Below, in pieces: positions 1,875 to 63,285 of a DNA stretch of 64,000 nucleotides (position 1 is the first letter of the stretch; every line of letters begins with the position of its first letter). Position numbers and translations under genes: made by a program. Below the pieces are notes generated by a model that ran no database searches, was not told the origin of the DNA, and saw only the letters and a program-made list of their open reading frames with translations. The stretch is from Rufibacter sp. XAAS-G3-1 (GTDB lineage Bacteria; Bacteroidota; Bacteroidia; Cytophagales; Hymenobacteraceae): positions 62,001 through 126,000 of the forward strand of contig NZ_JABFAM010000007.1 of the NCBI RefSeq assembly GCF_013623775.1. Direction: 5' to 3'.

Positions 1875-2243
1875 GTGCATCAAAGTCTTAGGCCATGTTC
1901 AACTTTTGGGTTTGCTGGCTCAGTCCGCAAGAATAAGGTTCTGCCAAAGCAATTTTTGCGCCTCGTGGCAGCGCTACGAAGGCGATAAAAGTTCTCTTTC
2001 TGGCCGTTTGCAGCGCAAAGATGAAATTTAAACATGCTCTAAAGCAATTCCCCTGGGGCAAGTGCCCGCTTTTACCGTCGTTTTTAGGCTATTTTCATAA
2101 AAACAGGCCAAAAACAAGAGGGTTGTCTGTCCACTGCCGCAGGCATTGGCTTGTGCCGTCGTTTTTAGCCTGTTTTTATGAAAACAGGTGTAAAGCTCTA
2201 AACAGCTTCCATGCTCTTAAGCTTACATCCAAATGAGTGTGTA

Positions 2244-2304
2244 GTTAACCAGAACCAAAAGTAGGTATATGGGCTATTCATTGATAAAATTGTGTTAACC
2301 AGAA
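2244..2304 (+). promoter_or_regulatory. Paired GTTAACCAGAA direct repeats upstream of the mannanase
   Basis: The 11-mer GTTAACCAGAA occurs at 2244-2254 and 2294-2304, exactly 50 bp apart (about five helical turns). A TAACTTTG at 2320-2327 fits the Bacteroidota -7 element; no good -33 element is present at the expected distance. This could be a binding site for an activator of the glycan locus. The regulator is unknown and the assignment is inference. Confidence 0.35.
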
Positions 2305-2399
2305 TGGTAGGGGTTCGCTTAACTTTGGTGAATGCTCTTTCCGTTTACAGGATGAAAGAAGTTTTTAAAGAGTTCAATGGCCAGCAAGAACCTGCATCT

Positions 2400-4055
2400 A
2401 TGAGAAAAAGCTATACCAGACTCCTTCTTCTATTATTGCCGTTTGTCTTCTCACTTCAGGCATCTGCCCAAAAATATGAAGCCGAAAACGCCACGCTGGC
2501 GGGTGGAGCCACAAAGCAGAGTTGCACTACCTGTTCCGGCGGCTTTTTTGTAGCGCAGCAAGATGGCAACCTCACTTTCAATGCCACGCCCCCTAAAGCC
2601 GGGTTTTACAATATCTACATCAGGGCGGCCTCTACGGGCGGGAGCAAGATCAATAAGTTTGAGGTAGACGGGAATACGCTGGATTTCTCCTTCTCGCAGA
2701 CCCAGTATTCCACCTTGAAATTGGTGGCCGCCCTGCAACTATCAGCGGGGCAGCACCAGGTGAAGATCATCAAGTCTTGGGGCTGGATCAATATTGACTA
2801 TCTGGAATTTGAAGAGGTAGAGGGTACTAACAGATTCAACCTGAACCAACAACTGGTTAACCCTAACCCAACCCCAGAAGCCAGAGCGTTGTATGATTTT
2901 CTGTTGGATAATTACGGCGATAAAATTATCTCTGGCGTGATGACCCTCAACAGCTTTGATGAGTCTACCTGGCTAAAACAAAATACCGGCAAAGAACCGG
3001 CGCTGTTGGGCTTAGATCTTATGCATAGCGGCAGAGGATATGCCTGGTACAATGACAAAGCCCCCATCATTGATGCCAAAACCTGGTACGAACGGAACGG
3101 CATACCTGCTATGCTGTGGCACTGGCGTGATCCTTCGCGCACCACCGAAGAATTCTATACCCGTAATACGTCCAAGCCCACCGGCACTACCTTCAATATC
3201 TCCAAAGTAGCTGACCCAAGCTCTGCGGAGTATAAAGCCATGCTGGCCGATATTGATTACATCGCTGGTATGTTGAAAGAACTCCAAAGCCAGCATGTAC
3301 CAGTCATCTGGCGGCCCTTGCACGAAGCGGCGGGCGGATGGTTTTGGTGGGGAGCCAAAGGTGGTGCGCCTTTGAAAACCCTTTGGCGTTTGATGTATGA
3401 CCGCATGGTAAACCACCATGGCCTCAAGAACCTTATCTGGGTCTGGACTCGCGAACCGAACGATGATGACTGGTACCCCGGCGATGAATATGTAGACCTG
3501 GTAGGCAGAGATGTGTACAAAGACGGCGATCACTCCTCACAGGTGCTGGAGTTCAGCGATATGAACAACCGGTACGGCGGCAAAAAGATGCTGACCTTAA
3601 GCGAAACCGGTTCTTTCCCAGAGGTAGACAACCTGGTCAAAGACGGGGCTGCCTGGTCTTGGTACATGCCTTGGTACGGCAACTATACCCGTGAAAGTAG
3701 ATATAACCCGCTTGACCTCTGGAAAAAGATGTTCGCCCATGAGTACGTCATCACGCTAGACGAAATGCCCAACCTTAGAAATTACACCAGACAAGACCAA
3801 ATAGTGACCGGTATAAAAGACATGGAAACCGATCAACGTGCTTTCACCGCTTACCCCACCCTGGTACAAGACCAACTGAGAGTGAAAGGAAGTAAGGCCA
3901 TCCAAACCATTGACGTGTATACCCAGGTCGGAAGCAGTGTACTAAAGCTAAAAACCAGCGGAAAAGAAGTAATGGTCTCCATGACAAGCCTGCGCCCAGG
4001 GTTCTACCTGGTTATAGTGAATGGCACGACTACACTCAAGATCATCAAAGAGTAG
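2400..4055 (+). CDS. Secreted GH26 beta-mannanase with N-terminal CBM and T9SS sorting domain
   Basis: 551 residues from the ATG at 2400, chosen because it gives a clean signal peptide (MRKSYTRLL ... ASAQ). The frame stays open about 36 codons upstream, but that part is not signal-like. Residues ~25-140 resemble a CBM6/CBM35-type beta-sandwich (KYEAENATLAGG...). Residues ~150-460 are glycoside hydrolase family 26: the acid/base Glu is E309 in RPLHEAAGGWFWWG and the nucleophile Glu is E402 in TLSETGSFP. The family hydrolyses beta-1,4-mannosidic bonds. The last ~70 residues (AYPTLVQDQL ... GFYLVIVNG) look like a type A T9SS C-terminal sorting domain, predicting export by the type IX system regulated by PorX (encoded at 7082). 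The gene follows the glycan-binding lipoprotein; together they form the end of a mannan-type utilisation locus. Confidence 0.92.
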   Translation: MRKSYTRLLLLLLPFVFSLQASAQKYEAENATLAGGATKQSCTTCSGGFFVAQQDGNLTFNATPPKAGFYNIYIRAASTGGSKINKFEVDGNTLDFSFSQTQYSTLKLVAALQLSAGQHQVKIIKSWGWINIDYLEFEEVEGTNRFNLNQQLVNPNPTPEARALYDFLLDNYGDKIISGVMTLNSFDESTWLKQNTGKEPALLGLDLMHSGRGYAWYNDKAPIIDAKTWYERNGIPAMLWHWRDPSRTTEEFYTRNTSKPTGTTFNISKVADPSSAEYKAMLADIDYIAGMLKELQSQHVPVIWRPLHEAAGGWFWWGAKGGAPLKTLWRLMYDRMVNHHGLKNLIWVWTREPNDDDWYPGDEYVDLVGRDVYKDGDHSSQVLEFSDMNNRYGGKKMLTLSETGSFPEVDNLVKDGAAWSWYMPWYGNYTRESRYNPLDLWKKMFAHEYVITLDEMPNLRNYTRQDQIVTGIKDMETDQRAFTAYPTLVQDQLRVKGSKAIQTIDVYTQVGSSVLKLKTSGKEVMVSMTSLRPGFYLVIVNGTTTLKIIKE

Positions 4056-5189
4056 GTGCCATCTACCCCGTTTCAAGCTTGTTTTCTGCAAAACCAGTGA
4101 AAAACGGGCAATTGATAGGGGAGGTATACTTGAGATCTAATGCCAATATCAACTCTGTGCCTTGAAGCTAACCCCTACCATGGTGCAGATTTACTTCCGT
4201 GACTTTTTCTCAGGTATTTATACCTGCTATAACGCCCTCTGGCCGGTGGTTCCCGGCGAGTCTGGAGACTCGCTTCATTCCCGGTCACGGGACTGGAGTC
4301 TCGCGCCAGTTTACTCTACACCGTGAGCACCAGTTTCCGTGATTCCGGCCTGTTTTCCGCAAAATAGCCCTAAAAGCGCATCACCAGTAAGGTTCTTCTC
4401 TCTGCGGGAGTTCGGGTTTCTCGCCCTCTCCTTGGCTTGTCCCCTGACAAGCCAAAATAGATGAATGGCAGGCTGAGACGCTTTGTTTCCGGCCTGTTGG
4501 GGGCAGGCCGGAGAAGCGGTTTCTGTGTTTTAGGCCCGTTTTCCGAAAAACAGCCCCAAAACGCATCAGCGGGGTTCCCGCTCTCTACTAGAGAGGGGGG
4601 CTAGGGACGGCTTTCTGCGGAAGTTAGATATAAGTTACGGAAGTAAATCCGCACCATAGTGCCTTAGAAAAAGGGGGGTACTTACTTTCCCTAGTTCCAG
4701 TCTTTCCCGAGCGCGCCTCGCTTTTGGCCCTGAATAGACATCAACTAAGAGCAAAGGACTTCCCAGGCCGAAAGGGCAGTGCGAGAGGGGAAGACGGGGG
4801 CCCGCGGGCGTGAGCGCATACCACCAAAGATGGAACAACACAGCACTTGCACCCACGCAACAAGCGGCCAAGCCAAGGGAACAGCAAACGGCATGCACCA
4901 TCCAATCCCACGCAAATAACAGCCAAGCCAAGGGAACAGCGAAAGGCGCACACCCGCTAACCGCATTAGCGCTCTAGTTGAGCTGGCCCAGGAAACGCGC
5001 AGCAACCTACCCCTCCCATGAAGAGATTTTCGCAATAAAAACCCCTCCCAGGCAGAAGCGCAAGAATAGACCAATAGAACTTGGGTGTGGCAAGCCAAGC
5101 GTAGTCTGGTGACCCGTTTCCAGGGTGTTTTAAGAAAAAGAGGACAGAAACTGACAGCAACCCCGCAAGATGTGGTAGGAAAAGCACCG
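4056..5189. repeat. 1.1-kb gene-free mosaic repeat island
   Basis: No supported gene. Modules in order are: a weak A-like palindrome (4070-4107); end module D forward (4178-4206, atttacttccgtgac); B dyad (4241-4310, GGTGGTTCCCGGCGAG ... CTCGCGCCAGT); A-palindrome (4341-4375); a stretch with CTTGGCTTGTCCCC...GACAAGCC and GGCAGGCTGAGACGC, which returns inverted near 55020-55110; A-palindrome (4527-4562) followed by GCATCAGC and an I module; D reversed (4630-4662); C element on the minus strand (4685-4899). The remainder (about 4900-5189) carries further C-like sequence. The open frames here are by-products of the GC-rich C element. Confidence 0.7.
4685..4899 (-). repeat. C element copy 1 (~215 bp, GC-rich dispersed repeat)
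   Basis: Read on the minus strand, the landmarks are CTTGGC, GTGGGTGCAAGTGCTGTG, GTATGCGCTCACG, CCGTCTTCCCC, TCTCGCACTGCCCTTTCGGCC, then GGCCAAAAGCGAGGCGCGCTC and AGACTGGAACTAGGG. The same order occurs at 31071, 33436, 52332, 57261 and 62735. No gene or promoter is evident inside; a structured RNA is possible but unsupported. Confidence 0.75.
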
Positions 5190-5603
5190 TTAGGCTTGCT
5201 CCACCACCGTGCTTTTCAGCCAGGCAACAGCCTCTTGTTTGTCTGTGAAAGTGCGTAAGGGAATAGGGAAACGCAGTTCTTGCCGGGCTTCCTCCACCTT
5301 GTCTTCGCGGGTAGGGTTTGGGGTAAGAAGGCGGGCCATTTTCTCCAGACGCGTTTGCATCAGGTTTTGCCCGAACTCCTTGAGAACGTCTTTGTACTCG
5401 GCACCGGGTATCTCCAGAGAGGCTTGGCTGGAGTCAATCAGGAGTTTCTTGATGTCGTAGCTTTTGATGTGGTCTACCAAGATCCGTAGCGCCTGCCTGA
5501 TCTCCAAAACCAAAAAGTCCTGCACATCGGGCCACTTAATGTAAAGTATATCAGTGGCCGGGTCATAGTCTAAGGTGATTAAGCCACTCTGGTAGATGAT
5601 CAT
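5190..5603 (-). CDS. STAS/SpoIIAA-like protein, paralogue 1
   Basis: 137 residues starting MIIYQSGLITLDYDPATDILYIKWP. The pattern is that of small STAS/SpoIIAA-like proteins of Cytophagales: a beta-rich start, a helix (QALRILVDHIKSYDIKKLLIDSS), and a C-terminal segment ending in an aromatic plus D/E-A-x-x-W-L motif (TDKQEAVAWLKS). The protein encoded at 18221-18628 has the same length and ends almost the same way (HPADALEWLNA), so I read them as distant paralogues. Such domains usually bind partner proteins; no catalytic residues are evident. It is monocistronic, 93 bases downstream of the HD gene on the same strand with an A-palindrome between. Confidence 0.6.
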   Translation of the reverse strand: MIIYQSGLITLDYDPATDILYIKWPDVQDFLVLEIRQALRILVDHIKSYDIKKLLIDSSQASLEIPGAEYKDVLKEFGQNLMQTRLEKMARLLTPNPTREDKVEEARQELRFPIPLRTFTDKQEAVAWLKSTVVEQA

Positions 5604-5649
5604 GGGGTTGGTTAGGTTGCAGGTACGTACGCTTTTATGAGTATACTCT

Positions 5650-5685
5650 GTTTTATGCCTGTTTTAGAGAAAGTAGCCGCTAAAC
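5650..5685. repeat. A-palindrome between the STAS-like and HD genes
   Basis: GTTTTATGCCTGTTTT / AGTAGCCGCTAAAC is a diverged copy with imperfect arms. It lies between two minus-strand genes, just after the HD gene stop, where it could also help end transcription. Confidence 0.55.
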
Positions 5686-5696
5686 GCCCCAGGTGA

Positions 5697-6935: not shown

Positions 6936-7007
6936 GATAACTAAGTTCTTCTAGTGTCCGTTGTCGATAAAGATGTTGGCATGCGTATATGTACGAAGAT
7001 TGCCTTG

Positions 7008-7043
7008 GTTTTAGGCCAGTTTTGCGAAAATAACGCCTAAAAC
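7008..7043. repeat. A-palindrome in the divergent HD/porX promoter region
   Basis: GTTTTAGGCCAGTTTT-GCG-AAAATAACGCCTAAAAC. It lies upstream of both divergently transcribed genes, where no transcript is expected to end, so it is unlikely to be only a terminator. Confidence 0.7.
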
Positions 7044-7081
7044 GCCAACCATCACGCACGCTATGAAACCCAATAAAAGCC

Positions 7082-10318: not shown

Positions 10319-10346
10319 CAGTTCTCATCCTTACCATACGCCTACT

Positions 10347-10396
10347 AAAAAGCGTTTCGGGCCTGTTTTCCAGAAAACAGGCCCGAAACGCTTTTT
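10347..10396 (+). terminator. Perfect 23-bp hairpin terminator after ald (A-palindrome form)
   Basis: The arms AAAAAGCGTTTCGGGCC-TGTTTT and AAAACAGGCCCGAAACGCTTTTT match perfectly around a CCAG loop, and the 3' arm ends in a T run. The inner 34 bases are the A-palindrome core, and the outer 8 bp extend it into a canonical terminator. Confidence 0.9.
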
Positions 10397-10433: not shown

Positions 10434-10470
10434 GTTTTAAGCCTTTATTTCAAAAAACAGCCCAAAAACG
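10434..10470. repeat. A-palindrome between ald and the flavin reductase gene
   Basis: GTTTTAAGCCTTTATTTC / AAAAAACAGCCCAAAAAC, a diverged copy directly downstream (minus strand) of the convergent flavin reductase-like gene and 38 bases from the ald terminator. Confidence 0.6.
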
Positions 10471-17616: not shown

Positions 17617-18220
17617 GCTTTTTACTTTCTTCTTCTTTCATTAAGAACGCTGCCTTAGAACTAGACCTGCTGTTACGCCATTCTGCCGGTGGTTCCCGGC
17701 GAGGCTGGAGACTCGTTTCATCCTTTGTCACGAGACTAAAGTCTCGCGCCAGTGCTCTCTAATGTGCTGCTTCCGCGCTGCCGCTTGCTCCAAAGACCTC
17801 GTAGTGCGCACAGCTCCTATGAGTGTCTATGCCAATGCCGTTTCCGGCCCGTTTTTCCTAAAACAGCCCCGAAATGCATTGGCAAAGCCCTTGCTGTTCG
17901 GGAGTTCTACTCCCGAATCTGCCTACTCCTGAACCCGCCTGCTGCGGAGTTACCCTCGCCGGGAACCACGGGCGAAAGAGGGTATTGGAACTCCGAAAGA
18001 GCGGTGTTCACCGATTTCCGCGTTTACGGCCTGTTTTCCGCAAAACGGTTCCAAAACGCATCAGCGGGGCTCCCCTCTCCGTGGGAGAGGGGCTGGGGGT
18101 GAGGTCTACCCTGCCGTAAGTCGGCAAATGCCCGGCCCACGTGTCAAGCTTAGGGTGAAAAGGGGTGCCATCGCGCTGGTGCAGAGTGAGGGGTTGCGCA
18201 GGAAAGTAAGCGTTAGTCGC
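17617..18220. repeat. Mosaic repeat island between dnaG and STAS-like paralogue 2
   Basis: No gene. Module order: B dyad (17685-17753), G module (17786-17840, CTCCAAAGACCTCGTAGTG...), A-palindrome (17840-17875) directly abutting G, H module (about 17877-18020) with the small palindrome TTCGGGAGTtctACTCCCGAA, A-palindrome (18021-18058), then GCATCAGC and an I module (about 18055-18105, CTCCCCTCTCCGTGGGAGAGGGG). The last ~110 bases show nothing recognisable. Confidence 0.7.
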
Positions 18221-27003: not shown

Positions 27004-27657
27004 GGGTGCGAGCTAAATAAAGAAGTAATGTTAGGGAATCTGCAGGAAAAAAGGAAAATCAATCCGCCCGCCTCTGTTAAAGAAAAGCCCGAAACCCAAA
27101 AACTGCGGGTAGGAATTAACTTGAAAGTAGCTGCTATCTGGCATTCTACTTTCCCCCTGTTTTTCTGAAAAGAGGCTATAATCACCACAAAAGGCATCAC
27201 TTCATACCTGACGTCACGCCCTCTTGCCGGTGGTTCCCGGCGAGTCTGGAGACTCGCTTCCTCCCATGTCACGAGACGGGAGTCTCGCGCCAGTACTTTC
27301 TAAACCTGTGAGGTCTCCAAGATCACAGGTTTTTGCGTTTCCAGCCTGTTGTCCGCAATACTGCCCGCTCCAAAGACCTCGTAGTGTGCGTAGCTCCTAC
27401 GAGTGTCTGGGCCAATGCCGTTTCTGGCCCGTTTTCCGCAAAACAGCCCCAAAGCGCTGGGGCGAAGGGAGGGTGTCTGCACCCGCAGAAAAGACCAACC
27501 ATAGAAAGCAATGCGTGCCGGAGACAAGGCAGTGCCTGGTCTCTATAGATATCTAATAACTCCGGTTTCCGCGTTTACAGCCTGTTTCCTGCAAAACAGC
27601 CCCGAAACGCATCAGCAAAACTCCCCTCTCCGGATCTCTCTCCCACGGGGAGGGGAG
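27004..27657. repeat. Mosaic repeat island before the 27658 lipoprotein
   Basis: No gene. Order: weak A-like stretch (~27150-27185), B dyad (27226-27294), F palindrome (27302-27332), weak A-like stretch (27335-27365), G module (27367-27420), A-palindrome (27420-27455) abutting G, A-palindrome (27572-27609), then GCATCAGC and an I module to ~27657 (CTCCCCTCTCC...). B-F-A here is the reverse order of A-F-B at 49286 and 55124. Confidence 0.7.
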
Positions 27658-30639: not shown

Positions 30640-31370
30640 CTTATAGTTATATTTTTAGAATGGTTTTGCTGGAATTGTAGCAAATATATCCATTATTTGG
30701 TTATCTCTAAGTAAAACATACTTCATGTGAAAAAAAATAATTTCATTTGTGGTGAACATAAAATAGTGAAATAAACTAAAAGGAAAGGCAGTGTCACTCT
30801 TCGAGCTTGCTATTTGCCAATAAAGTGACGGGAAGAAGTTGTCTGGGCTGAAAGTGATTGAGCTAAAAACAGCATTATACCGCTATAGAGCGAGTGGTGC
30901 GCCTTTGGAGGAGATGGTGGAGCGCCAGAGCTTACTTCTGCCCTTCCCAGGCTAATCTTGTAAAGATAGTCCTAGCACTCTTGCTATGACTGCAAAAAGT
31001 CACGGAAGTAAATCCGCACCATAGTAAGTCCAATTAAAAATAACAAGAGCTCACCTGCAAACCTCTGCTACTTTCCCCCGTTCCAGTCTTCCCCGAGCGC
31101 GCCTCGCTTTTGGCCATAGATAAGCAAAACTAAGAGAGACAAACGGCTCAGGCCGAAAGGGCAGTGCGAGAGGGGAAGACGGGGCCCCGCGGCCGTGAGC
31201 GCATACCGCCAGAGATGAAGCAATACAGCACTTGCACCCCCGCAGGGAACGGACAAGCCAAGGGAACAGCAAACCGCGTGCACCTGCCAAACTCTCCAAA
31301 GAAGCCAGATGCAACCCCAAAAAAGAGCAGATTCCTTTCTTGTTGTTTTCAGCCTGATTTCCCGAAAATA
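30640..31370. repeat. Gene-free region with C element copy 2 and D module
   Basis: 30640-30990 is AT-rich and shows no gene or module. A D end module (minus orientation) is at about 30998-31029. The stretch 31030-31070 (ccaattaaaaataacaagagctcacctgcaaacc) is shared in reverse with the DNA after the C copy at 62735. C element copy 2 (minus) spans 31071-31283, and an A-palindrome is at 31345-31380. Confidence 0.65.
31071..31283 (-). repeat. C element copy 2
   Basis: Same landmarks as the 4685-4899 copy, on the minus strand. Together with its flanking D module it matches the copy at 62735-63064 over about 300 bp, so D appears to be one end of a larger unit. Confidence 0.75.
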
Positions 31371-33435: not shown

Positions 33436-33650
33436 TATGCACATTTCTGCTGTTCCCTTGGCTTTTCTGCTTTTTACGTGGGTGCAAGTGCTGTATTGTT
33501 TCATTTCTGGCGGTATGCGCTCACGGCCGCGGGGCCCCGTCTTCCCCTCCCGCACTGCCCTTTCGGCCTGAGAAGATATTCGCTCTTAGTTTCTGTTTAT
33601 CTATGGCCAAAAGCGAGGCGCGCTCGGGGAAGACTGGAACTGGGGAAAGG
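33436..33650 (+). repeat. C element copy 3
   Basis: Plus-strand copy: TGTTCCCTTGGC, GTGGGTGCAAGTGCTG, GTATGCGCTCACGGCC, CCGTCTTCCCC, GGCCAAAAGCGAGGCGCGCTC, AGACTGGAACTGGGG. It is not followed by the K-G-A modules seen at copies 5 and 6. Confidence 0.75.
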
Positions 33651-34235
33651 AGCAGTAATAATAGAACCTGTAGAGACCAGGCACTGTCTTGTCTCTACCA
33701 CGCATTCCCATCTCCTGCAAAGATTCATTCCCCTCCTGGGAGGGGTTGGGGTGGGTTCTGGCGTTCCACCAACTCCTTATCATAGCGAAGTAAGCTTTGA
33801 AAAGCGATGTTGTCGTTCACCCCAAGATTCTTTCAGGAGGATAAAGGAAGTAGGTATCTTTCCTTGTTCTTAGAAAGAGGGCAAACCGTTGCTATTTTCG
33901 CCCTCTTTAATAGGATAGTCCTTGAAAAGTAATGATGTTACTCGCTCGCCTCCGGCGTCCCGCCATTTTGCGAATGCTTCACAATATAGTAGGAAGCGGC
34001 CAGAGACCGCAGGTAACCCACACTCGCCAGAGGCGAGCGAATGTTTGGTTTCGTTGATCATTATTTTTGCAGGGCTACCTTTATGAGATCGTTTCTGGCG
34101 TGTTTTGCTGAAAACAAGCCAGAAATGGAGCCAAATATGAGAGGTTGGTGTTGCATTGTTTTCCTGCGGAATTATGCCCGCATGTTCCACGCCTTCTGGG
34201 GTTTTTCAGGTGCGGGGCAATCAGGGAAATCCTAG

Positions 34236-41165: not shown

Positions 41166-41733
41166 AAACCAAGAGCTGGTTTTGGGCTTTGTTGGTGAAA
41201 ATAGGCTTGAAACGGGAGGATTTGGTTTTGCCTTAGAAAGTGATTGTTAAAATACGAAGACCAGTAATGCGTCTGTCGCGCTGCACGGTAGACACGAATC
41301 GGAGACTCGCGCCAGCGGTTCTTTATTAACGATTCCTTTGTATTGAGCAGCCCGTTAAAGCAGCCAGCGCTTACTTAACCTGCTTACTCCCAGGTATTTC
41401 TATTTACAGCCTTTCGCTTGAGCGCCTAGAGTTCGACCACCTCTGAGCGTTAGCGATGCAGGTGAGGAGAAATTACAGCGCGAGGGCGGAAGGCGGGGCC
41501 TCGCGGCCGTGAGCGCTCGGAGGGAAACCATGCAACAACCAAGCATAAGGGCACCGCATCAACCATCCGCCACGCTAGCAATGGCAAACTGCATGCACTT
41601 CTAGGTTTCCAAAGAAGAGATAAATCAAATCTGGGAACGCCATTTAAATGGCCAAAAAGGAGAAGACGTTTCAAGCCCGTTTTACTTAAAACAGACCTGA
41701 AATGCCTTTTCAATCCTTGAAAGGAAAACTTCG
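41166..41733. repeat. Gene-free region with two A-palindromes and a degenerate C element
   Basis: A-palindromes at 41179-41213 and 41668-41703, a partial B dyad (about 41291-41320, ACGAATCGGAGACTCGCGCCAG), and a degenerate C element on the minus strand at about 41457-41560 (GGCGGGGCCTCGCGGCCGTGAGCGC). No gene is supported. Confidence 0.55.
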
Positions 41734-43290: not shown

Positions 43291-45288
43291 ATGTACAACA
43301 TTGACGAGTTGAAGGATTCTCTTCTTTCAGAACTCAAAGAGATTGCTGAGAACCTCGGCGTCACGAACTTCAAGAAGCTCAGCAAACAAGACCTGATCTA
43401 CAAAATCCTGGATCAGCAAGCCGTTACCCCCCTTGAGAATCTCCCCAAAAAATATAAAAAAACATCTAAGAAGGCAGACGAACAGACCGATGCTGCGGTA
43501 GCGGTAGCGGATGTGCCCGTTCCGGAGACGGTGGTGGACAACGCCCCTGTTGCCATGCCAGCACCAGTGCAGGAAACACCGGTGCAAGCTGTCCCGGAAG
43601 ATGTTCCGGCAGCTGCTCCGGCCCGTGGCCGAACCAGAACTACCTCTGCTGAGCGTCCCGTGAGAGCAGAACGTGCCCCGGCAACGGTGCGGGAAGACAG
43701 ACTCCATGCGCCGCAGGCCCTGCGCCCCGACATTCGCGAAGCACGGGAACTGTCCCGTTCTGAAGGAAGGGAGCCCCAGCCCCGCGAAAGCCGTCCTGAG
43801 CCCCGCGAGAACCGCCCGCAGCCGCGTGATCTTCAACCGCAACCACGCGAACCACGTGAACAACGGGAGCCCCGGGAACAGAGAGAGCCTGCCCCACGGG
43901 TGCCGCGTGAACCCAGAGAGCAGCGGGAGCCAAGGGAACTCCAGGCCCGTGAGCCTCGGGAAAATACCACCCGGGAGCCAAGAGAAAACGCCCCCAGAGA
44001 ACCTAGGGAGAACGCGCCCAGAGAACCACGCGAGCCAAGGGAAAATACCCCCCGTGAGCCACGCGATAACAATAACAACCCCAACTGGCAAAACCGCCGC
44101 GAGCCCAATCAGCAGAGCCAGCCCAGGCCGCAGCAACAACAGAATAACGCTAATAGCGCCAATTACCGCGAGTTTGACGGCGTTATTGCGAACGAAGGCG
44201 TGCTGGAGTTGATGCAGGACGGCTACGGCTTCCTGCGCTCTGCCCACTACCATTACCTGGCCAGCCCAGATGATATCTATGTGTCACCGTCGCAGATTAA
44301 GTTGTTTGGTTTGAAAACCGGCGACAGCGTGAAAGGCACCGTGCGGGCACCCAAAGAAGGCGAGAAATATTTCGCGTTGCTGAAGGTAGACTCCGTGAAC
44401 GGCCGTACCACCGAGGAAATCAGAGATCGCATTCCGTTCCAGCATTTAACGCCTCTTTTTCCGGAAGAACGCCTGAAACTGACCACCCGCTCCAGCCAGT
44501 ACTCTACCCGCATCATGGATTTGTTCGCCCCCATAGGGAAAGGACAGCGTGGTTTGATTGTGGCCCAACCCAAAACCGGTAAAACAGTATTGCTGAAGGA
44601 GATAGCGAACGCCATCACTGAAAACCACCCCGAAGTGTACCTCATGATCCTGTTGATTGATGAGCGCCCCGAGGAGGTAACCGACATGGCCCGTAGCGTA
44701 AAAGCCGAGGTGATTGCCTCTACCTTTGACGAACAGGCCGAGCGCCACGTGAAAATCTCCAGCATTGTGCTGGACAAAGCCAAGCGCATGGTAGAGTGCG
44801 GCCATGATGTGGTTATTCTGCTAGATTCTATCACTCGTCTGGCCCGGGCGTACAACACCGTGGTTCCTTCTTCCGGTAAAATCCTATCTGGTGGGGTGGA
44901 TGCCAATGCGTTACACAAACCGAAGCGCTTCTTCGGGGCGGCCCGTAACGTGGAGAACGGCGGCTCTTTGACCATCATCGCCACGGCTTTGATTGACACT
45001 GGTTCTAAGATGGACGAGGTAATCTTCGAGGAATTCAAAGGAACCGGCAACATGGAACTCCAGTTGGATCGCAAACTGGCCAACAAGCGCGTGTACCCAG
45101 CCATCGACGTTCCGGCTTCCGGTACCCGCCGCGAAGACCTGCTCATGGATCGCGACGAACTCAGCCGTGTTTGGATCCTGCGTAAATTCATGTCTGACAT
45201 GAACTCCGTAGAGGCCATGGAATTCCTGAAAGACCGCATGAAAGGCACCAAAGACAACGACGAGTTCCTGATCTCCATGAATAGTTAG
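43291..45288 (+). CDS. rho: Transcription termination factor Rho with long Arg/Pro/Glu-rich disordered insert
   Basis: 665 residues, about 250 longer than E. coli Rho. Residues 1-45 are the Rho_N helical domain ([37 protein letters not shown]). Residues ~60-290 are a low-complexity insert, first Ala/Val/Pro-rich and then dominated by REPREN/PREPRE repeats and finally Asn/Gln. The RNA-binding cold-shock-like domain ([21 protein letters not shown]) is ~300-370, and the RecA-like motor follows with P-loop P427-K-T-G-K-T432 and [16 protein letters not shown]. The hexamer ends untranslated transcripts. Bacteroidota Rho inserts have been linked to phase separation in Bacteroides. Strong terminator right after the gene. 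Confidence 0.97.
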
Positions 45289-52331: not shown

Positions 52332-52720
52332 TGCACGCCTTTTGCTGTTCCCTGGGCTTGGCTGTTTTTGCGTGGGTGCAGGTGCTGCGTTGTTTCATCT
52401 TAGACGGTAAGCGCTCACGGCCGCGGGGCCCCGTCTTCCCCTCTCGCACTGCCTTTTCGGCCTAAGAAGTCTTTCTCTCTTAGCTGATGTCTATTCAGGG
52501 CCAAAAGCGAGGCGCGCTCGGGAAAGACTGGAACTGGGGAAAGGAGCAGAGAGTATTGGCTGAACTCTACCTCTAGTATTGACCCTTCTAAAGCAGATAC
52601 TTCCCCTTTGAAGGGGGATGTTTACACCTGCTGATCCACGTATTGCTGGTACTAACGCAATGCCGCCCCCTCCAAAGACCTTGTAGCGTCTTCAGAGCTG
52701 CGAGCGTCTACGCCAATGCC
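52332..52720 (+). repeat. Composite island C(copy 5)-K-G between actP and acs
   Basis: C element copy 5 (52332-52544), K module (52587-52655, GATACTTCCCCTTTG ... GATCCACGTATTGCTGGTACT), G module (52668-52720, CTCCAAAGACCTTGTAGCGTC), followed by the A-form terminator 52735-52780. The same order appears at 57261-57692. No gene. Confidence 0.75.
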
Positions 52721-52734: not shown

Positions 52735-52780
52735 CATGCGTTTTGAGGCTGTTTTCTTAAAAATAACCTCAAAACGCATG
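52735..52780 (-). terminator. Extended A-palindrome behind actP
   Basis: CATGCGTTTTGAGG-CTGTTTT / AAAAATAACCTCAAAACGCATG, 15 bases beyond the actP stop. The outer 13 bp are perfectly paired. It is also the last module of the C-K-G-A composite. Confidence 0.7.
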
Positions 52781-54724: not shown

Positions 54725-55422
54725 AGGTTTCCAATTTAAGGAATAGGGGCACAGCCGATGGCAGCTATTTGCCAGTATCAAGCTAAACAGCAATATATTC
54801 AACTTCTAAATATGCTGTTTTTTTCTTAAAAGGTACTGTCGCCTCTCAAAATAATCTGGCAAGGAAGGTATGTCTTTTGTTTTCTTTTTAAGGAACCCGT
54901 CTAAAGTTTGCCATTTTATTAGCGCCGCAAGCGTCTGCCTGGGCCTGTTTGGAAATAGACTTCTAACTGCCCTTGCGCTGGGAGAGAGACGTTTAGCGGC
55001 TGTTTTCCCACTTCCCCGGCTGTCTCCCGACAGGACGGCAGAAAAGCGTCTCAGCCTGCCACTCTATATATTGGCTTGAGGGGACAAGCCAAGGAAAGCA
55101 GAGAGGCCTTCCAGCCCCGCTGTGCGTTTTGGGGCTATTTTTCGGAAAACGGGCCCAAAACGCGCGAACCTGTGAGGTCTCCAAGACCTCACAGGTTTAG
55201 AACCAACTGGCGCGAGACTTCAGTCTCGTGACATGGGGAGTGAAGCGAGTCTCCAGACTCGCCGGGAACCACCAGCAAGATTGCGTAACCGCAGTAAATA
55301 ACCCTTCATAGGTTCAAGGCATGCGTGGGCACCTGCTAAGAATAAGAGCCTGGGAAACAAGCTCTTATTCTTTTCCTGAAAAAGTTTATCTTGGTGCGTC
55401 TTTGAAGTAGATTTATCCTGGT
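54725..55422. repeat. Gene-free region with A-F-B composite
   Basis: 54725-54985 shows no gene. 54990-55110 contains a half A-palindrome and a stretch shared, inverted, with 4420-4510 (GGCTTGAGGGGACAAGCC ... CTTCCAGCC). Then A-palindrome 55124-55163, F palindrome 55167-55198 and B dyad 55207-55275 are contiguous, in the same order as 49286-49437. The last 100 bases are probably promoter DNA. Confidence 0.65.
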
Positions 55423-57110: not shown

Positions 57111-57770
57111 GAGGGTTCGCAGAAAAAGATTATACCCTTATTGGTTTATTTCTGCGCTTTGGCATTTGTCTGGAAGTGGCTTTGGTAGAGTGATTAGTTT
57201 GTGCACGTCTTTCGCTGTTTGTTTCCTTGGCTTTTCTGTTTGTTGCGTGGGTACTTAGCAGGTGCACGCCATACGGTGTTCCCTTGGCTTGTCCGTTTGT
57301 TCCGTGGGTGCAGGTGCTGTATTGTTTCATTTTATGCGGTATGCGCTCACGGCCGCGAGGCCCCGTCTTCCCCTCTCGCACTGCCCTTTTGGCCTGCACA
57401 GTTTATTTCTCTTAGTTGGTGTTGGTCTATGGCCAAAAGCGAGGCGCGCTCGGGAAAGACTGGAAATGGGGAAAGTTGTAGAGCCCATATCCATTAGTTC
57501 GATACTTTTGCTTTCTAAAACAGATACTCCCCCTTTGAAGGGGGCGAAGGGGGATGTTTACACCTGCTGATCCACGTATTGCTGGTACTTCCGCAATACC
57601 GCCTGCTCCAAAGACCTCGTAGTGTCTTTAGACTTACGAGTGTCTGTGCCGATGCCGTTTAGATCCTATTTTCCGCAAAACAGCTCAAAAACGCACCAGC
57701 ATGGCTCCGTGGGAGAGGGGGGTGAGAGGCTATCTCCCGCGGAAGGTAAGATTGGTTTACACGAGTCCAG
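57111..57770 (+). repeat. Composite island C(copy 6)-K-G-A-I
   Basis: After ~150 bases of C-like spacer: C element copy 6 (57261-57475), K module (57513-57590), G module (57604-57657), A-palindrome (57657-57692) abutting G, then GCACCAGC and a shortened I module (to ~57735). Module order and spacing match 52332-52780. No gene. Confidence 0.75.
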
Positions 57771-57834: not shown

Positions 57835-57855
57835 TACTGGCTTTTGGAAGGATTC

Positions 57856-58296: not shown

Positions 58297-58338
58297 GGTT
58301 CTTTTGAAATATTGGTAAACGTCAAAGATAGTAGGTAA

Positions 58339-59832: not shown

Positions 59833-60310
59833 ATCGCGTGCGCTAGGAGAAGCGGAACCCACTTCCCGAATGAAAGACAGAAACAGCCGCCCGTTCTCTT
59901 TTCAGAAACCCGGGGCTACAAAAGTAGAATTTTTGCTCTACTTATAGCACCCTTGATTTGGAGCGGTGCGCTTTCAGCTAGTCACGTTTTGGCAGACTTT
60001 TAAGCAAAACAGGCCAAAAACGGCCTGGGGGCTTCCTCATTGGGGGCCTGACTTCCACAAGAGTGTTTTTACCCTCTTTTCTTTAAAACAGCCTTAAAGC
60101 ATGTTTAGATTTGAGGTTTGCAGGCTCAACTACCCAGAGAAAGGTTCTGCGGAAGCGTTTTTTGAGGGGCTAAGCAGCGCTACGGGGCGACGCAACCGCG
60201 ACCGCAGGTACTTTTTCTGGTTGTTTGCAGCGCAAAGATGAAATGTAAACAAGCTCTTAAAACCGCTTTTGGCGTAAGGTATTTGGCAAGGCAAAGAGCA
60301 GGGCAGAAGG
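59833..60310. repeat. Gene-free divergent region with two A-palindromes and E element copy 2
   Basis: A-palindromes at 59985-60022 and 60064-60099 lie between the divergent kinase and gcvT genes. E element copy 2 (60100-60258) abuts the second. E copies have terminal inverted repeats of the type ATGTTTAnATTTGAGGTTTGC / GCGCAAAnnTGAAATGTAAAC. No gene. Confidence 0.7.
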
Positions 60311-60341
60311 TTTAGAAACCCGCCTGAATTTTGTATTTTTG
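60311..60341 (+). promoter_or_regulatory. Promoter of gcvT
   Basis: TTTA at 60311-60314, a 19-base spacer, and TATTTTTG at 60334-60341. This is a good Bacteroidota -33/-7 pair with correct spacing, 34 bases before the ATG. Confidence 0.7.
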
Positions 60342-60375
60342 CCTTTCTTAACCCAGCTTCTTAAATCACAGCTAT

Positions 60376-61470
60376 ATGGAATTGAAGAAAATTGCCCTCA
60401 ATGATGTGCACGAAGCACTGGGCGCGAAGATGGTGCCTTTTGCCGGCTACAACATGCCCGTACGCTACAGTTCAGACCTGGATGAGCACCACACCGTGCG
60501 CAAAGCCGTAGGTATTTTTGACGTGTCGCACATGGGCGAGTTTCTGGTTTCGGGCCCCCAGGCCCTGGACTTGCTCCAGCGCGTGACCACCAATGATGCC
60601 TCTAAACTAACCCCCGGCAAAATCCAGTACTCTTGCCTGCCCAACACCCAAGGCGGCATTGTGGATGACCTGCTGGTGTATTGCCTGGCTCCCCAGGAAT
60701 ACATGCTGGTGGTCAACGCCTCCAACATTGAAAAAGACTGGAACTGGATCAGCCAGTTCAATACCCACGGGGCCGAGCTGAAGAACGTCTCAGACGAGAT
60801 GTCTCTGTTTGCCGTGCAAGGCCCCAAAGCCATTGAAGCCCTGCAACCGCTCACCTCCGTTGACCTGGCCTCTATGGTGTACTACACCTTTGACAAAGGC
60901 CAGTTCGCCGGTCAGCCCGACGTGATCATCTCGGCCACCGGTTACACCGGCGCGGGCGGCTTTGAAATCTACGTGCCCAACCAGAGCGCCAAAGAAGTTT
61001 TCCAGAAGATCATGGAAGCCGGTGCCCCCGTGGGCATCAAACCCATTGGCCTGGGTGCCCGCGACACCCTGCGCCTGGAAATGGGCTTCTGCCTCTACGG
61101 CAACGACATCAGCGATACTACCTCGCCGCTGGAGGCCGGGCTGGGCTGGATCACCAAATTCAACAAAGACTTCACCAACGCCCCCGCGCTCAAAGCCCAG
61201 AAAGAGCAAGGCGTGCGCCGCAAACTCATCGGCTTTGAGATGATGGAGCAGGGTATTCCGCGCAGCCACTACGAGATCGTGAACGCCGAGGGTGCCCCCA
61301 TTGGCGAAGTAACCTCCGGTACCATGTCGCCCTCTTTGGGCAAAGGCATTGGCCTGGGCTATCTGCAAAATGAATACACCGCCCCCGGCACCGAGATTCT
61401 CATCAAAGTACGGAACAAGCAACTCAAAGCCCAGGTAGTGAAACTGCCGTTTTATAAACCTACGGTTTAG
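60376..61470 (+). CDS. gcvT: Glycine cleavage system aminomethyltransferase (T protein)
   Basis: 364 residues, full length. The N-terminal folate-binding pattern is [42 protein letters not shown]. Then come [13 protein letters not shown], the catalytic-Asp region in GTRDTLR-like form ([19 protein letters not shown]), and the C-terminal domain [17 protein letters not shown]. It transfers the aminomethyl group from H protein to tetrahydrofolate, releasing ammonia. The gcvH and gcvP genes are not in this window. Confidence 0.97.
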
Positions 61471-61673
61471 AGTTCTGAGTCAATGTAACGGAGTTCTGAG
61501 TCTTGAGTCCAGAGTCCTGAGTTGGAAACGTGAATTTTTCGGCTCAAGACGCAGAACCTTTGTTGGCGTTTAGGGGCTGTTTTTGAGAAAATAGCCCCTA
61601 AACGCCAAATTTTTTCATCTAAATCAGCACTCTTTCCATTCACTCAAGACTCAGCACTCAAGACTCAGAACTC
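61470..61673. repeat. GAGTTCTGAGTC simple repeats flanking an A-palindrome, before comB
   Basis: GAGTTCTGAGTC units at 61470-61523 and the inverse units GACTCAGAACTC/CACTCAAGACTC at 61641-61673 face each other across an extended A-palindrome (61563-61608, TTGGCGTTTAGGGGCT / AGCCCCTAAACGCCAA). The second tract ends five bases before the comB ATG. It could fold as a long cruciform. Confidence 0.75.
61563..61608 (+). terminator. Extended A-palindrome after gcvT
   Basis: TTGGCGTTTAGGGGCT / AGCCCCTAAACGCCAA pair perfectly around a TTTT-rich centre, 92 bases after the gcvT stop. Confidence 0.6.
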
Positions 61674-61678
61674 TTTTT

Positions 61679-62386
61679 ATGCCTTCCCTAGACGTTTGCT
61701 TCAGCCCAGAGCTGTTGCCCTTGTATAATTTAACCGGAAAGATTGCCGTAGCCGTAGATGTGTTGCGCGCCACCTCCAGCATGGTGACCGCCCTGGCCAA
61801 CGGCATCACCCACATTGCGCCCGTGAGTGAACTGGAAGCCTGCCTCGCCTACCGCGACCTGGGCTATCTGGTGGCCGCCGAGCGGGACGGCGTCAAAGCC
61901 GAAGGGTTTGATTTGGGCAACTCGCCCTTACACTATTTAGAGGAAGACCGCACCGGCCGTCTGCTCGCTATTACCACCACCAACGGCACCCAGGCCATCC
62001 GGCTTTCCCGCGCTGCGGATGAAGTACTGGTGGGCGCTTTCCTCAACGTGGGAGCCGTCGCCGACTATCTGCGCAAAGCCAATAAAGACGTAGTCGTGGT
62101 CTGTGCGGGCTGGAAAGGCCTGTTCAACCTGGAAGACACCCTTTTTGCCGGTGCCCTGGCTGAACGCCTGGAGGGCGATTTCGAGTTAAACCATGACGCC
62201 ACGCTGGCCGCCTACCACCTTTACCGAACCGCCAAACCAGACCTGCTGGGTTTCCTCTCCAAATCATCGCACGTGCAGCGGTTGGAACGCCTCCACATCT
62301 TAAAAGACATTGAATTCTGCCTGCAGGAAGATACCTACACCGTAGTGCCGGTCTTGAAAGAAGATTTTTTGGTGCCGGCGGAGTAA
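61679..62386 (+). CDS. comB: ComB-like 2-phosphosulfolactate phosphatase
   Basis: 235 residues. Motifs: VAVDVLRATSSMVTALANG (conserved Asp-Arg-Ala), AERDGVKAEGFDLGNSPLHY, ITTTNGTQAIRLSR, VVCAGWKGLFNLEDTLFAGAL. The family hydrolyses 2-phosphosulfolactate to sulfolactate with Mg2+, known from coenzyme M synthesis in methanogens; in bacteria it may serve sulfonate or sulfonolipid chemistry. No comA is nearby. Bacteroidota make sulfonolipids (capnine), but that route is thought to start from cysteate, so a link is speculative. Confidence 0.9.
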   Translation: MPSLDVCFSPELLPLYNLTGKIAVAVDVLRATSSMVTALANGITHIAPVSELEACLAYRDLGYLVAAERDGVKAEGFDLGNSPLHYLEEDRTGRLLAITTTNGTQAIRLSRAADEVLVGAFLNVGAVADYLRKANKDVVVVCAGWKGLFNLEDTLFAGALAERLEGDFELNHDATLAAYHLYRTAKPDLLGFLSKSSHVQRLERLHILKDIEFCLQEDTYTVVPVLKEDFLVPAE

Positions 62387-63229
62387 GGTTCGGCTAAGCG
62401 CATGTTTACATTTGAGGTTTGCCGGCTCAACTAACCAGAGAAAGGTTCTGCGGAAGCGTTTTTTGAGCCGCGTAGCAGTGTTACGGGGCGACTTAACCGC
62501 GAACGCAGGTTCTTTTTATGGCCGTTTGCAGCGCAAACCTGAAATGTAAACAAGCTCTAAAAGCGAAAGCCTGTTTTGCGGCCTTTTTGGGTGAATTACC
62601 TGTAAAACGGGTGCATCCCGGGAGAGTGGGGTACGTGCGTCTTCCCGTCGCTAGAAGGATGAAGCGTAAGTGAGTAATACCACTATTGGTTCCTTTCTGC
62701 GCTTTGATTTGGCTTCTTTGGAGAGATGAGGGGGGCATGGAATATGCTGTTCCCTTGGCTTGTCCGCTTTTTACGTGGGTGCAGGTGCGGCTCTTTGCAT
62801 AGCTTCCGCTAAGCGCTCACGGCCGCGGGGCCCCGCCTTCCCCTCTCGCACTGCCCTTTCGGCCTGAGAAGTTCTCTTCTCTTAGCTGATGTTTTTTCAG
62901 GGCCAAAAGCGAGGCGCGCTCGGGGAAGACTGGAACTGGGGAAAGGAACAGAGGTTTGCAGGTGAGCTCTTTTTATTTTAATTGGACTTACCATGGCGCG
63001 GATTTACTTGCGTGACTCTTGGTGTGACTGCAATAAGCCACGGAAGTAAATACGCGCCATGGTAGCGGTTATTGGTTGTATTGCCTCCTATCCCCAACAA
63101 AGGCGTATTCCCCCCGCGGAGGGGTAGGTTTCGGCGCATCAATCATTCAATAGGGGTATAAGCAAGTTTCCCTAACTCGGCCAGAGGCCGATGGTAACCC
63201 ACACACGCGGGACGCGAGCGAGAGAAATC
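62387..63229. repeat. Gene-free region with E copy 3, C copy 7 and a D hairpin
   Basis: E element copy 3 (62401-62558) starts 14 bases after the comB stop. After ~170 bases without a module, C element copy 7 (62735-62946, plus) follows, then sequence shared with 31030-31070, then two D end modules facing each other (62989-63064). 63065-63229 has short dyads (CGCGGGACGCGAGCGAG type) but no gene. Confidence 0.7.
62989..63064. repeat. D module inverted pair (long hairpin)
   Basis: TACCATGGCGCGGATTTACT and AGTAAATACGCGCCATGGTA face each other with ~33 bases between. Single D copies occur at 4178-4206, 4630-4662 and 30998-31029, each beside a C or B module. Confidence 0.75.
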
Positions 63230-63285
63230 AAAGGCTTCCGTTTAGCGGCCGTTTCTTAAAAACAGCCGCTAAACGGAAGCCTTTT
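63230..63285 (-). terminator. Extended A-palindrome terminator of the MazG-like gene
   Basis: AAAGGCTTCCGTTTAGCGGC / GCCGCTAAACGGAAGCCTTT is a 20-bp perfect outer stem, 13 bases after the stop. The core changes GGCC to GCGG on one arm and CCGC on the other, a clear compensated substitution. Confidence 0.88.

What the first reader, a model, noticed from the sequence alone, without database searches (positions are those of the whole stretch)
2080..63285. A-palindrome: 41 copies of one compact intergenic inverted repeat in 64 kb, with compensated arm changes
A ~36-bp unit, GTTTnnGGCnnGTTTT - 3-5 nt loop - AAAACnGnCnnnAAAC, recurs at 2080, 2161, 4341, 4527, 5650, 7008, 10347, 10434, 14483, 17567, 17840, 18021, 18747, 21165, 21396, 23231, 25211, 27420, 27572, 29352, 30255, 31345, 33252, 34091, 39681, 40860, 41179, 41668, 45345, 49286, 49672, 49799, 52194, 52735, 55124, 57657, 57771, 59985, 60064, 61563 and 63230. 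All lie outside genes. The middle of the arm varies while its partner changes with it: CGGGC/GCCCG at 10347, AGCGG/CCGCT at 63230, AGGGG/CCCCT at 61563, GAGG/CCTC at 52735, CTGGC/GCCAG at 34091. Some copies are extended into perfect terminators, but others (7008, 14483, 18747, 33252, 59985, 60064) sit between divergent genes where nothing needs terminating. That density (about one per 1.5 kb) and paired change suggest selection on a structure: a dispersed RNA hairpin, a protein-binding dyad, or a spreading element whose mobiliser is elsewhere.
Basis: seen in the sequence. Interest (0 to 1): 0.78.

Follow-up and report, generated by a model that had tools for sequence, protein, structure and literature searches.

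The report
Conserved gene-boundary palindrome of Rufibacter
A 36-letter symmetrical DNA mark sits between genes in thousands of copies (estimated) in one bacterial genus, usually once between genes that point at each other, and it looks more like a landing site for an unidentified protein that separates neighbouring genes than like the RNA hairpin or jumping sequence first suspected.

Summary
The repeat is real. A gapless 36-bp matrix finds all 41 listed copies plus 13 more at 14 bits or above; Markov shuffles give none. It is a dyad of four boxes, GTTTT-N6-GTTTT-N4-AAAAC-N6-AAAAC, found in 16 of 16 genomes of the window's genus (Rufibacter, inferred) and nearly absent from 43 others.

The paired-change claim holds for a minority. 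Copies whose outer flanks also pair (12% and 20% in two large samples) look like terminator hairpins. In copies without paired flanks the arms vary almost independently, with no sense-strand G-U excess over A-C. That fits a double-stranded DNA dyad better than an RNA hairpin.

Intergenic occupancy is conserved across 11 species. Convergent regions of 100-300 bp keep it in 306 of 306 pairwise comparisons, drawn from at most 8 loci per species. No convincing empty site was seen. Copies change in place into species dialects.

Best reading: a genus-wide transcription-unit boundary element bound by an unknown dimeric or tetrameric protein, acting as a bidirectional roadblock or insulator. The protein and its action are inferred, not shown.

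The parts
2080..2115 (.). dyad copy
   Evidence: matrix 47 bits
2161..2196 (.). dyad copy
   Evidence: matrix 42 bits
   Evidence: matrix 33 bits
4341..4376 (.). dyad copy
   Evidence: matrix 41 bits
4527..4562 (.). dyad copy
   Evidence: matrix 49 bits
   Evidence: matrix 35 bits
5650..5685 (.). dyad copy
   Evidence: matrix 39 bits
7008..7043 (.). dyad copy, divergent genes
   Evidence: matrix 40 bits
10354..10389 (.). dyad copy inside an extended terminator-like hairpin, convergent genes
   Evidence: 16/16 arm pairs plus 7 outer pairs
10434..10469 (.). dyad copy
   Evidence: matrix 43 bits
14483..14518 (.). dyad copy, divergent genes
   Evidence: matrix 37 bits
   Evidence: matrix 27 bits
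   Evidence: matrix 33 bits
17574..17609 (.). dyad copy
   Evidence: matrix 46 bits
17840..17875 (.). dyad copy
   Evidence: matrix 38 bits
18022..18057 (.). dyad copy
   Evidence: matrix 38 bits
18747..18782 (.). dyad copy, divergent genes
   Evidence: matrix 47 bits
21165..21200 (.). dyad copy
   Evidence: matrix 40 bits
21396..21431 (.). dyad copy
   Evidence: matrix 47 bits
23231..23266 (.). dyad copy, overlaps a predicted gene by one base
   Evidence: matrix 36 bits
25210..25245 (.). dyad copy
   Evidence: matrix 31 bits
   Evidence: matrix 31 bits
27420..27455 (.). dyad copy
   Evidence: matrix 43 bits
27573..27608 (.). dyad copy
   Evidence: matrix 41 bits
29352..29387 (.). dyad copy
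   Evidence: matrix 38 bits
30255..30290 (.). dyad copy
   Evidence: matrix 35 bits
31345..31380 (.). dyad copy
   Evidence: matrix 44 bits
33252..33287 (.). dyad copy, divergent genes
   Evidence: matrix 38 bits
34091..34126 (.). dyad copy, divergent genes
   Evidence: matrix 37 bits, 14/16 arm pairs, 1 outer pair
   Evidence: matrix 29 bits
39682..39717 (.). dyad copy
   Evidence: matrix 36 bits
40860..40895 (.). dyad copy
   Evidence: matrix 36 bits; a closely similar copy lies at R. glacialis L003 20703, within the syntenic stretch
41178..41213 (.). dyad copy
   Evidence: matrix 32 bits
41668..41703 (.). dyad copy
   Evidence: matrix 35 bits
45345..45380 (.). dyad copy downstream of rho, convergent genes
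   Evidence: matrix 47 bits
   Evidence: matrix 25 bits
   Evidence: matrix 20 bits
49289..49324 (.). dyad copy
   Evidence: matrix 42 bits
49671..49706 (.). dyad copy
   Evidence: matrix 37 bits
49797..49832 (.). dyad copy
   Evidence: matrix 37 bits
52194..52229 (.). dyad copy
   Evidence: matrix 30 bits
52740..52775 (.). dyad copy inside an extended hairpin
   Evidence: 14/16 arm pairs plus 6 outer pairs
55126..55161 (.). dyad copy
   Evidence: matrix 50 bits
57657..57692 (.). dyad copy
   Evidence: matrix 39 bits
57785..57820 (.). dyad copy inside an extended terminator-like hairpin
   Evidence: 13/16 arm pairs plus 14 outer pairs; R. glacialis has an extended copy in the corresponding place, L003 5257
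59986..60021 (.). dyad copy, divergent genes
   Evidence: matrix 34 bits
60065..60100 (.). dyad copy, divergent genes
   Evidence: matrix 38 bits
61568..61603 (.). dyad copy inside an extended hairpin
   Evidence: 15/16 arm pairs plus 5 outer pairs
   Evidence: matrix 26 bits
63240..63274 (.). 35-bp (N3) dyad copy inside an extended terminator-like hairpin (63230-63285)
   Evidence: sequence read; N3 spacing class seen

Best explanation
The repeat is a genus-wide, ancestral, functional double-stranded DNA element: a binding dyad of two 16-bp half-sites, each with two GTTTT boxes 11 bp apart (about one helical turn), separated by 4 bp. Shown by comparison: fixed spacing, strong conservation of presence and of the box positions, near-independent half-sites in copies without paired flanks, placement soon after stop codons, a copy in most convergent intergenic regions, species dialects. 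Inferred: an unidentified homodimeric or tetrameric protein of the genus binds each copy and holds transcription units apart as a bidirectional roadblock or insulator that stops or marks polymerase leaving either gene. A minority of copies (12% and 20% in the two large samples) has been merged with an intrinsic terminator: the near-palindrome became the tip of a longer hairpin, and base pairing itself appears to be selected mainly there.
For: Fixed geometry: spacing N4 836, N3 86, all other lengths 56 together against 40 in shuffles. In copies without paired flanks arm matches are close to the independence expectation at most positions (525 copies, 11 species). Sense-strand G-U 334 v A-C 353 in those copies, 71 v 46 in extended copies. 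No preferred orientation in tandem regions: 69/65 and 42/33. Occupancy of orthologous intergenic regions over 11 species: with element in A, B has it in 1744 of 1916; without it in A, B has it in 167 of 1016 (ordered pairs, not independent). At 100-300 bp: convergent 306/306 (at most 8 loci per species; 61 of 65 such regions occupied), tandem 282/334 v 53/253, divergent 33/65 v 29/366. Kept more often than a substitutions-only neutral model predicts: 0.71-1.00 v 0.24-0.46. Convergent regions of every length class carry one in 82-93%. Tandem single-copy regions: median 35 nt from the upstream stop, 80% nearer the stop than the next start.
Against: No binding protein was found; ParB-like proteins, the one non-transposase family I tried, show no extra copy in the genus. 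Divergent regions also carry it (40-48% at 150-500 bp, 76% at 500 bp or more), where no gene needs terminating. Residual pairing exists in non-extended copies: pair 6-31 has z 3.0, and between orthologs double changes exceed independence, 273 v 188, 149 of them restoring a pair; dialect shifts and unequal divergence could cause this, but I did not separate them. A crude scan found separate intrinsic terminators equally often in tandem regions with and without the element (43 of 218 v 35 of 172), and in convergent regions in 35 of 119 with and 8 of 16 without, so it does not clearly replace them. The 306/306 figure rests on few loci. The neutral comparison counts any element in the region, which favours retention. 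Gene calls are my own hexamer caller. No RNA-seq or binding data.
Confidence: 0.5

Rival explanations
1. Nucleoid or topology site: the dyad is bound by an architectural protein or attracts a topoisomerase between transcription units, absorbing supercoils (most between convergent genes), and has little to do with termination.
For: Occupancy convergent > tandem > divergent follows where positive supercoils meet; divergent copies fit better than under termination; A/T boxes are 11 bp apart. Gyrase binding of enterobacterial REP/BIME is recalled.
Against: Median distances of 26-35 nt from stop codons look more local than topology would need; genus restriction is odd for a conserved topoisomerase.
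Confidence: 0.2
2. RNA-level element: every copy is a transcribed hairpin working as an intrinsic terminator or 3'-end stabiliser.
For: Extended copies show strong covariation, G-U excess on the sense strand 71 v 46 and more T-runs nearby (33 of 57 v 105 of 310); covariation score of 47 window copies 0.175 v 0.135 in shuffles; excess double changes between orthologs.
Against: Copies without paired flanks: near-independent arms, no G-U preference. All copies: spacing almost only N4 or N3, no orientation bias in tandem regions.
Confidence: 0.12
3. DNA uptake or self-recognition sequence: copies accumulate because DNA bearing them is preferentially taken up and recombined, giving in-place dialects.
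For: Thousands of copies (estimated), species dialects in place, scarcity on two plasmid-like contigs, presence in terminator hairpins. For Neisseriaceae DUS, thousands of copies, dialects and accumulation in the core genome are described in PMC3630211, and co-option in terminators in PMC1852404 (passages).
Against: Rare in coding sequence; mostly one per intergenic region; 36 bp and degenerate instead of a short, highly conserved core of about 9-12 nt; no uptake assay.
Confidence: 0.1
4. REP-like selfish palindrome moved by a Y1 (RAYT-type) transposase and lately quiescent.
For: Size, intergenic location near 3' ends and high copy number match REPs (PMC3733652 section 15); Y1 transposase homologs in 15 of 16 genus genomes; species dialects.
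Against: G007 has no PF01797 match and still carries copies; vertical occupancy and no convincing empty sites; no conserved terminal tag in the flanks of window copies; hairpin pairing not maintained in most copies; few low-scoring copies, 22 of 259 between 12 and 20 bits in 400 kb.
Confidence: 0.08

Closest known systems
REP elements (GTAG-/CGTC-tagged repetitive extragenic palindromes)
   Same: 20-40 bp palindromes, high copy, intergenic, mostly between convergent or co-directional genes close to 3' ends (PMC3733652, passages and section 15)
   Different: no terminal tag seen, no obligatory RAYT, arms vary nearly independently in most copies, occupancy conserved between species at about 80-87% nucleotide identity
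DNA uptake sequences of Neisseriaceae and Pasteurellaceae
   Same: thousands of copies, lineage-restricted, species dialects, part of some terminator hairpins; core-genome accumulation in Neisseria and scarcity on two plasmid-like contigs here (PMC3630211, PMC1852404, passages)
   Different: 36-bp degenerate dyad, mostly confined to intergenic DNA, usually one per region; uptake not tested
Intrinsic (Rho-independent) terminators
   Same: extended copies are long, covarying hairpins, more often with a T-run nearby
   Different: most copies have no extended stem; copies without paired flanks show almost no covariation and no G-U preference
Protein-bound roadblock or insulator sites (yeast Reb1-type termination; recalled, not looked up)
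   Same: a bound double-stranded site between transcription units, active from either side
   Different: no protein known here; I recall no bacterial case at nearly every convergent gene pair, and one library search with roadblock terms (listing only) showed none by title and abstract

Membership tests
REP/RAYT palindromes | short, high-copy, extragenic palindrome | tested here: met
   36 bp, 248 hits of 16 bits or more per 400 kb in G000, mostly intergenic
REP/RAYT palindromes | terminal GTAG or CGTC tag | tested here: not met
   flank columns of 54 window hits show no fixed tag, only weak C/T before and G/A after; flanks in other genomes not tabulated
REP/RAYT palindromes | cognate Y1 transposase in the same genome | tested here: not met
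   15 of 16 genus genomes have a PF01797 match, G007 none, yet G007 carries copies (114 exact-pattern matches on both strands; 8 matrix hits in 20 kb); flanks of the transposase genes were not examined
REP/RAYT palindromes | mobility: insertion polymorphism or empty sites | tested here: inconclusive
   126 present/absent cases, 11 with the element mostly gapped; none of the 22 printed alignments is a clean insertion; one genome per species, so strain-level mobility was not tested
DNA uptake sequence | about a thousand or more near-identical short cores per genome | tested here: not met
   copies are degenerate; 8 of 36 positions reach 94% identity between orthologs
DNA uptake sequence | species dialects and scarcity outside the core genome | tested here: inconclusive
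   dialects seen; two large plasmid-like contigs depleted, but a 7.5-kb contig has 3 hits, about chromosomal density
DNA uptake sequence | biases DNA uptake through a receptor | not testable with these tools
   needs transformation assays
Intrinsic terminator | RNA hairpin kept by compensatory change, followed by a U-run | tested here: inconclusive
   pairing met in the extended minority (12% G000, 20% G006), not clearly in copies without paired flanks; T-run near 33 of 57 extended copies
Protein-binding dyad | fixed half-site spacing, symmetric independent half-sites, no strand preference | tested here: met
   slight residual pairing at one position, and excess double changes between orthologs
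Protein-binding dyad | a cognate DNA-binding protein | not testable with these tools
   ParB-like family has no genus-specific extra copy; others not tried
Rfam RNA families | match at gathering threshold in the window | tested here: not met
   0 matches

The most novel reading that the evidence does not exclude
Rufibacter has a genus-specific bacterial boundary system: one protein-bound DNA dyad at nearly every convergent gene pair and most transcription-unit ends, thousands per chromosome, with the protein's specificity and all its sites drifting together into species dialects, so that transcription-unit separation rests on a bound protein beside hairpins and Rho.
Probability: 0.35. Interest if true: 0.9.

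Novelty: new variant of a known kind. Interest (0 to 1): 0.72.

Why it matters
Bacterial transcription-unit ends are usually explained by RNA hairpins and Rho. A conserved DNA dyad in most convergent intergenic regions of a whole genus, with near-independent half-sites and species dialects, would be a DNA-level boundary and a case of thousands of sites co-evolving with one factor. It also shows that compensated arms in a subset can mislead: splitting copies by flank pairing and counting G-U against A-C on the sense strand separates hairpins from double-stranded sites.

Tried and rejected
Strand polarity along the chromosome: the first 40 hits listed for G006 were all on +, but reading 400 kb showed both strands (72 of 137 on +); a listing artefact. 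Copy-number bursts: exact-pattern counts range from 3 to 667 per genus genome (both strands, palindromic copies counted twice), but matrix density is 4-8 per 10 kb in stretches from 15 of the 16 genus genomes (3.4 in 400 kb of G006); the spread reflects dialects and sharpness. An equivalent dyad in other genera: a de novo search for fixed inverted word pairs in 80 kb from each of 5 genera and in Pontibacter and Hymenobacter loci found none comparable, and 0 matrix hits. Among 79 named loci other than R. glacialis, 8 have one or two hits of 14 bits or more, one of them a hit of 20 or more. ParB or Noc-like factor, because the core resembles parS (recalled): one ParB-family match per genus genome, as in the sister genera searched. 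Rfam: nothing.

Literature: Rufibacter with palindrom (2 papers) and Rufibacter with intergenic (1 paper), listings only, none on topic by title and abstract; general searches, listings only; a REP survey has no Rufibacter, Hymenobacter or Pontibacter in its main text (PMC12306157, term search). A candidate binding protein was not pursued further because genome-wide gene comparison is not practical with these tools.

Limits of counts: ordered species pairs are not independent; convergent comparisons rest on at most 8 loci per species; regions include orthologous stretches, cap counts at 3 copies, and short regions have little room for two copies, so low variance there says little. The dialect counts compare 24 distinct G005 copies and 9 distinct G012 copies with many partners, with marker letters chosen after seeing the copies. 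Gene calls are from my own script. Rows dropped before counts: copies with N or too near a contig end, and copies with exactly 4 of 8 paired flank positions (neither class). Model R1 was scored on at most 109 candidates per genome and counts both strands of a palindromic site, so its numbers are not site counts. The 47 copies used for A1/R1 leave out 7 of 54 window hits. The output was cut, so I saw only part of those alignments.

Full report
What is there. The 41 listed copies are all present. A gapless 36-column matrix finds 54 sites at 14 bits or more in the window and none, on average, in 10 Markov shuffles. The consensus is about GTTTTNNGSCTGTTTT-N4-AAAACAGSCNNAAAAC. It can be read as four GTTTT boxes, two direct at 11 bp in each half and the halves inverted around N4. 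The 47 copies aligned come out without gaps. Over 14 genomes and 1.67 Mb the half-site spacing is N4 in 836 sites and N3 in 86; the other eleven spacings tested give 56 together against 40 in shuffles, N5 being highest with 12 against 3. The copy at 63240 is an N3 copy.

Where it occurs. The window is part of a 5.30-Mb assembly in 73 contigs. In 400 kb of the own genome there are 248 sites at 16 bits or more (shuffle 0), which extrapolates to about 3,300 per genome; in 400 kb of G006 there are 137. Density is 4-8 per 10 kb in syntenic stretches from 15 of the 16 genus genomes and 3.4 in the 400 kb of G006. The exact core pattern occurs in 16 of 16 genus genomes and 0 of 43 others; the pattern read backwards occurs in none of the 59. 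A sequence-only model gives about 109 matches, its scoring limit and with both strands counted, in 16 of 16 genus genomes, and 0 to 6 in the 43 others, 10 of which have any. A de novo search for fixed dyads in five sister genera found no equivalent. In 100 kb each of two plasmid-like contigs it is scarce: 5 on G012 C2 against 54 in 100 kb of chromosome, and 3 on G009 C2 against 41 in 60 kb; but the 7.5-kb contig G009 C3 has 3. That these contigs are plasmids is a guess from size. The eleven element-free stretches over 9 kb in the two 400-kb samples have G+C of 0.38-0.48 against 0.50 and 0.51 for the samples.

Hairpin or double-stranded site. For the 47 aligned copies, pairing and covariation exceed column shuffles: 77.9% against 75.3% paired and score 0.175 against 0.135. 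Splitting copies by how many of the 8 outer flank positions pair, which does not look inside the element, separates two classes. Extended copies (5 or more; 34 of 287 in G000, 33 of 163 in G006) covary strongly at several variable arm positions and in the flanks. Non-extended copies (3 or fewer; 217 and 109) show arm matches close to the independence expectation. Pooled over 525 such copies from 11 species, pair 6-31 is slightly above (z 3.0), and pairs 12-25 (z -2.9) and 18-19 (z -4.5) are below. On the sense strand of tandem regions, G-U and A-C are equal in non-extended copies (334 and 353 in 285 copies), while extended copies have more G-U (71 against 46 in 77 copies). T-runs lie near 33 of 57 extended and 105 of 310 non-extended copies. 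So the extended minority look like terminator hairpins, and the non-extended copies behave like a double-stranded dyad. Against this, orthologous non-extended copies show more double changes than independence predicts (273 against 188, 149 restoring a pair); dialect shifts that change both halves could produce this, but I did not separate the causes.

Evolution. For eight directed species comparisons, an intergenic region with an element keeps one in 71-100% of cases (16 to 26 regions each), against 24-46% expected under a substitutions-only neutral model at the measured intergenic identity; regions without one rarely have one in the other species (0-22%). The observed side counts any element in the region, which favours retention. 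Over all ordered pairs of 11 species the table is +/+ 1744, +/- 172, -/+ 167, -/- 849. With region length held to 100-300 bp, convergent regions keep it in 306 of 306 comparisons, tandem in 282 of 334 (against 53 of 253 where the first species lacks it), divergent in 33 of 65 (against 29 of 366). The convergent figure comes from 65 regions, 1 to 8 per species, of which 61 carry an element. Within orthologous copies, positions 3, 4, 14, 15, 22, 23, 33 and 34 are 94-98% identical while flanks are 29-55% in a gapless comparison; requiring a matrix hit in both inflates the box values. No convincing empty site was seen: of 126 present/absent cases 11 have the element mostly gapped, and none of the 22 alignments printed, many from the same few loci, is a clean 36-bp insertion. 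One set of orthologous sequences shows the element in the same region in 13 of 13 species (IGR 2).

Dialects. Several genomes have their own version. G005 uses GTTTAGGGGCTCTTTT-TCCA-AAAACAGCCCCTAAAC and G012 uses GTTTTCGGGCTCATTT-CTGG-AAATGAGCCCGAAAAC. The change is in place: in 142 orthologous pairs G005 carries at least one of its two marker letters in 140 against 24 in the partner, and in 59 pairs G012 in 59 against 14. These pairs use 24 distinct G005 and 9 distinct G012 copies. Averaged over species pairs, orthologous copies are more alike at variable positions (0.476) than unrelated copies (0.375), but in some pairs, such as G005 with G014, there is no difference (0.333 and 0.333), while copies within G005 resemble each other (0.613).

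Placement. Convergent regions of every length class from 60 bp up carry an element in 82-93% of cases, at 100-150 bp none/one/two = 7/48/0. Tandem regions carry it in 29-35% below 150 bp and 61-71% above; divergent regions in 0-4% below 150 bp, 40-48% at 150-500 bp and 76% at 500 bp or more. Variance is below the mean in the classes that hold elements, but short regions have little room for two copies, so this says most for regions above 150 bp. In regions with a single copy, convergent copies lie a median 26 nt from the nearer stop (109 regions); tandem copies 35 nt from the upstream stop, 80% nearer the stop than the next start (234); divergent copies 84 nt from the nearer start (81). Orientation relative to genes is even (69/65 and 42/33). 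Separate intrinsic terminators, by a crude scan, are found in 43 of 218 tandem regions with and 35 of 172 without the element, and in 35 of 119 convergent regions with and 8 of 16 without.

How it most likely works. Shown by comparison: a conserved element of double-stranded character, with fixed spacing, at transcription-unit boundaries. Inferred: a dimeric or tetrameric protein of the genus binds it and separates units from both sides, as a roadblock for polymerase or an insulator. The divergent copies and the presence of separate terminators are easier to explain with insulation than with pure termination. The extended minority shows how a near-palindrome can be absorbed into an intrinsic terminator. 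The protein is unknown: ParB-like proteins have no genus-specific extra copy, and Y1 transposases are found in only 15 of 16 genomes.

Known relatives. REPs share size, copy number and a preference for convergent and co-directional 3' ends (PMC3733652, passages and section 15), but not the tag, obligatory transposase, hairpin constraint in most copies or cross-species occupancy seen here. Uptake sequences share thousands of copies, dialects and presence in terminators, and in Neisseria accumulation in the core genome (PMC3630211 and PMC1852404, passages), but not the size, near-exclusion from coding sequence or the usual one per region. Two searches of the paper library for Rufibacter with palindrom and with intergenic returned no report of it by title and abstract; that library lacks most subscription papers.

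Noticed in passing
window about 4690-4818, 31077-31203, 33489-33713, 41476-41595, 52411-52541, 57342-57473, 62795-62956; L003 9566-9696: A second dispersed repeat of about 130 bp, at several places in the window and also in R. glacialis.
   Followed up: no
window about 17781-18060, 27355-27610, 57590-57690: Similar composite modules that include one or two copies of the dyad together with shared flanking sequence, as if larger blocks had been duplicated (by eye).
   Followed up: no
G003, G004 and G006 IGR 24 (L129-L132, L152-L158): A MITE-like inverted repeat (TGTAGGGGCAATCCCTTGTGGTTGCCC and its complement; a diverged form in G003) present in three of the eight species shown and not seen in the others at the same place: a presence/absence repeat, unlike the dyad.
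   Followed up: no
IGR 2, several species: Variable runs of a GAGTTCTGAGTCTTGAGT-like short repeat flank the dyad in one intergenic region and differ in length between species.
   Followed up: no
G000:C13 gaps 160-181 kb and 310-322 kb; G006:C1 gaps 88-101, 175-194, 272-289 and 372-391 kb: Stretches of about 12-21 kb without any dyad, G+C 0.38-0.48, possibly acquired islands; the dyad could serve as a marker of long-resident DNA.
   Followed up: partly
window 43291-45288: rho encodes a 665-aa protein with about 257 residues between the Rho_N match and the RNA-binding domain match.
   Followed up: no
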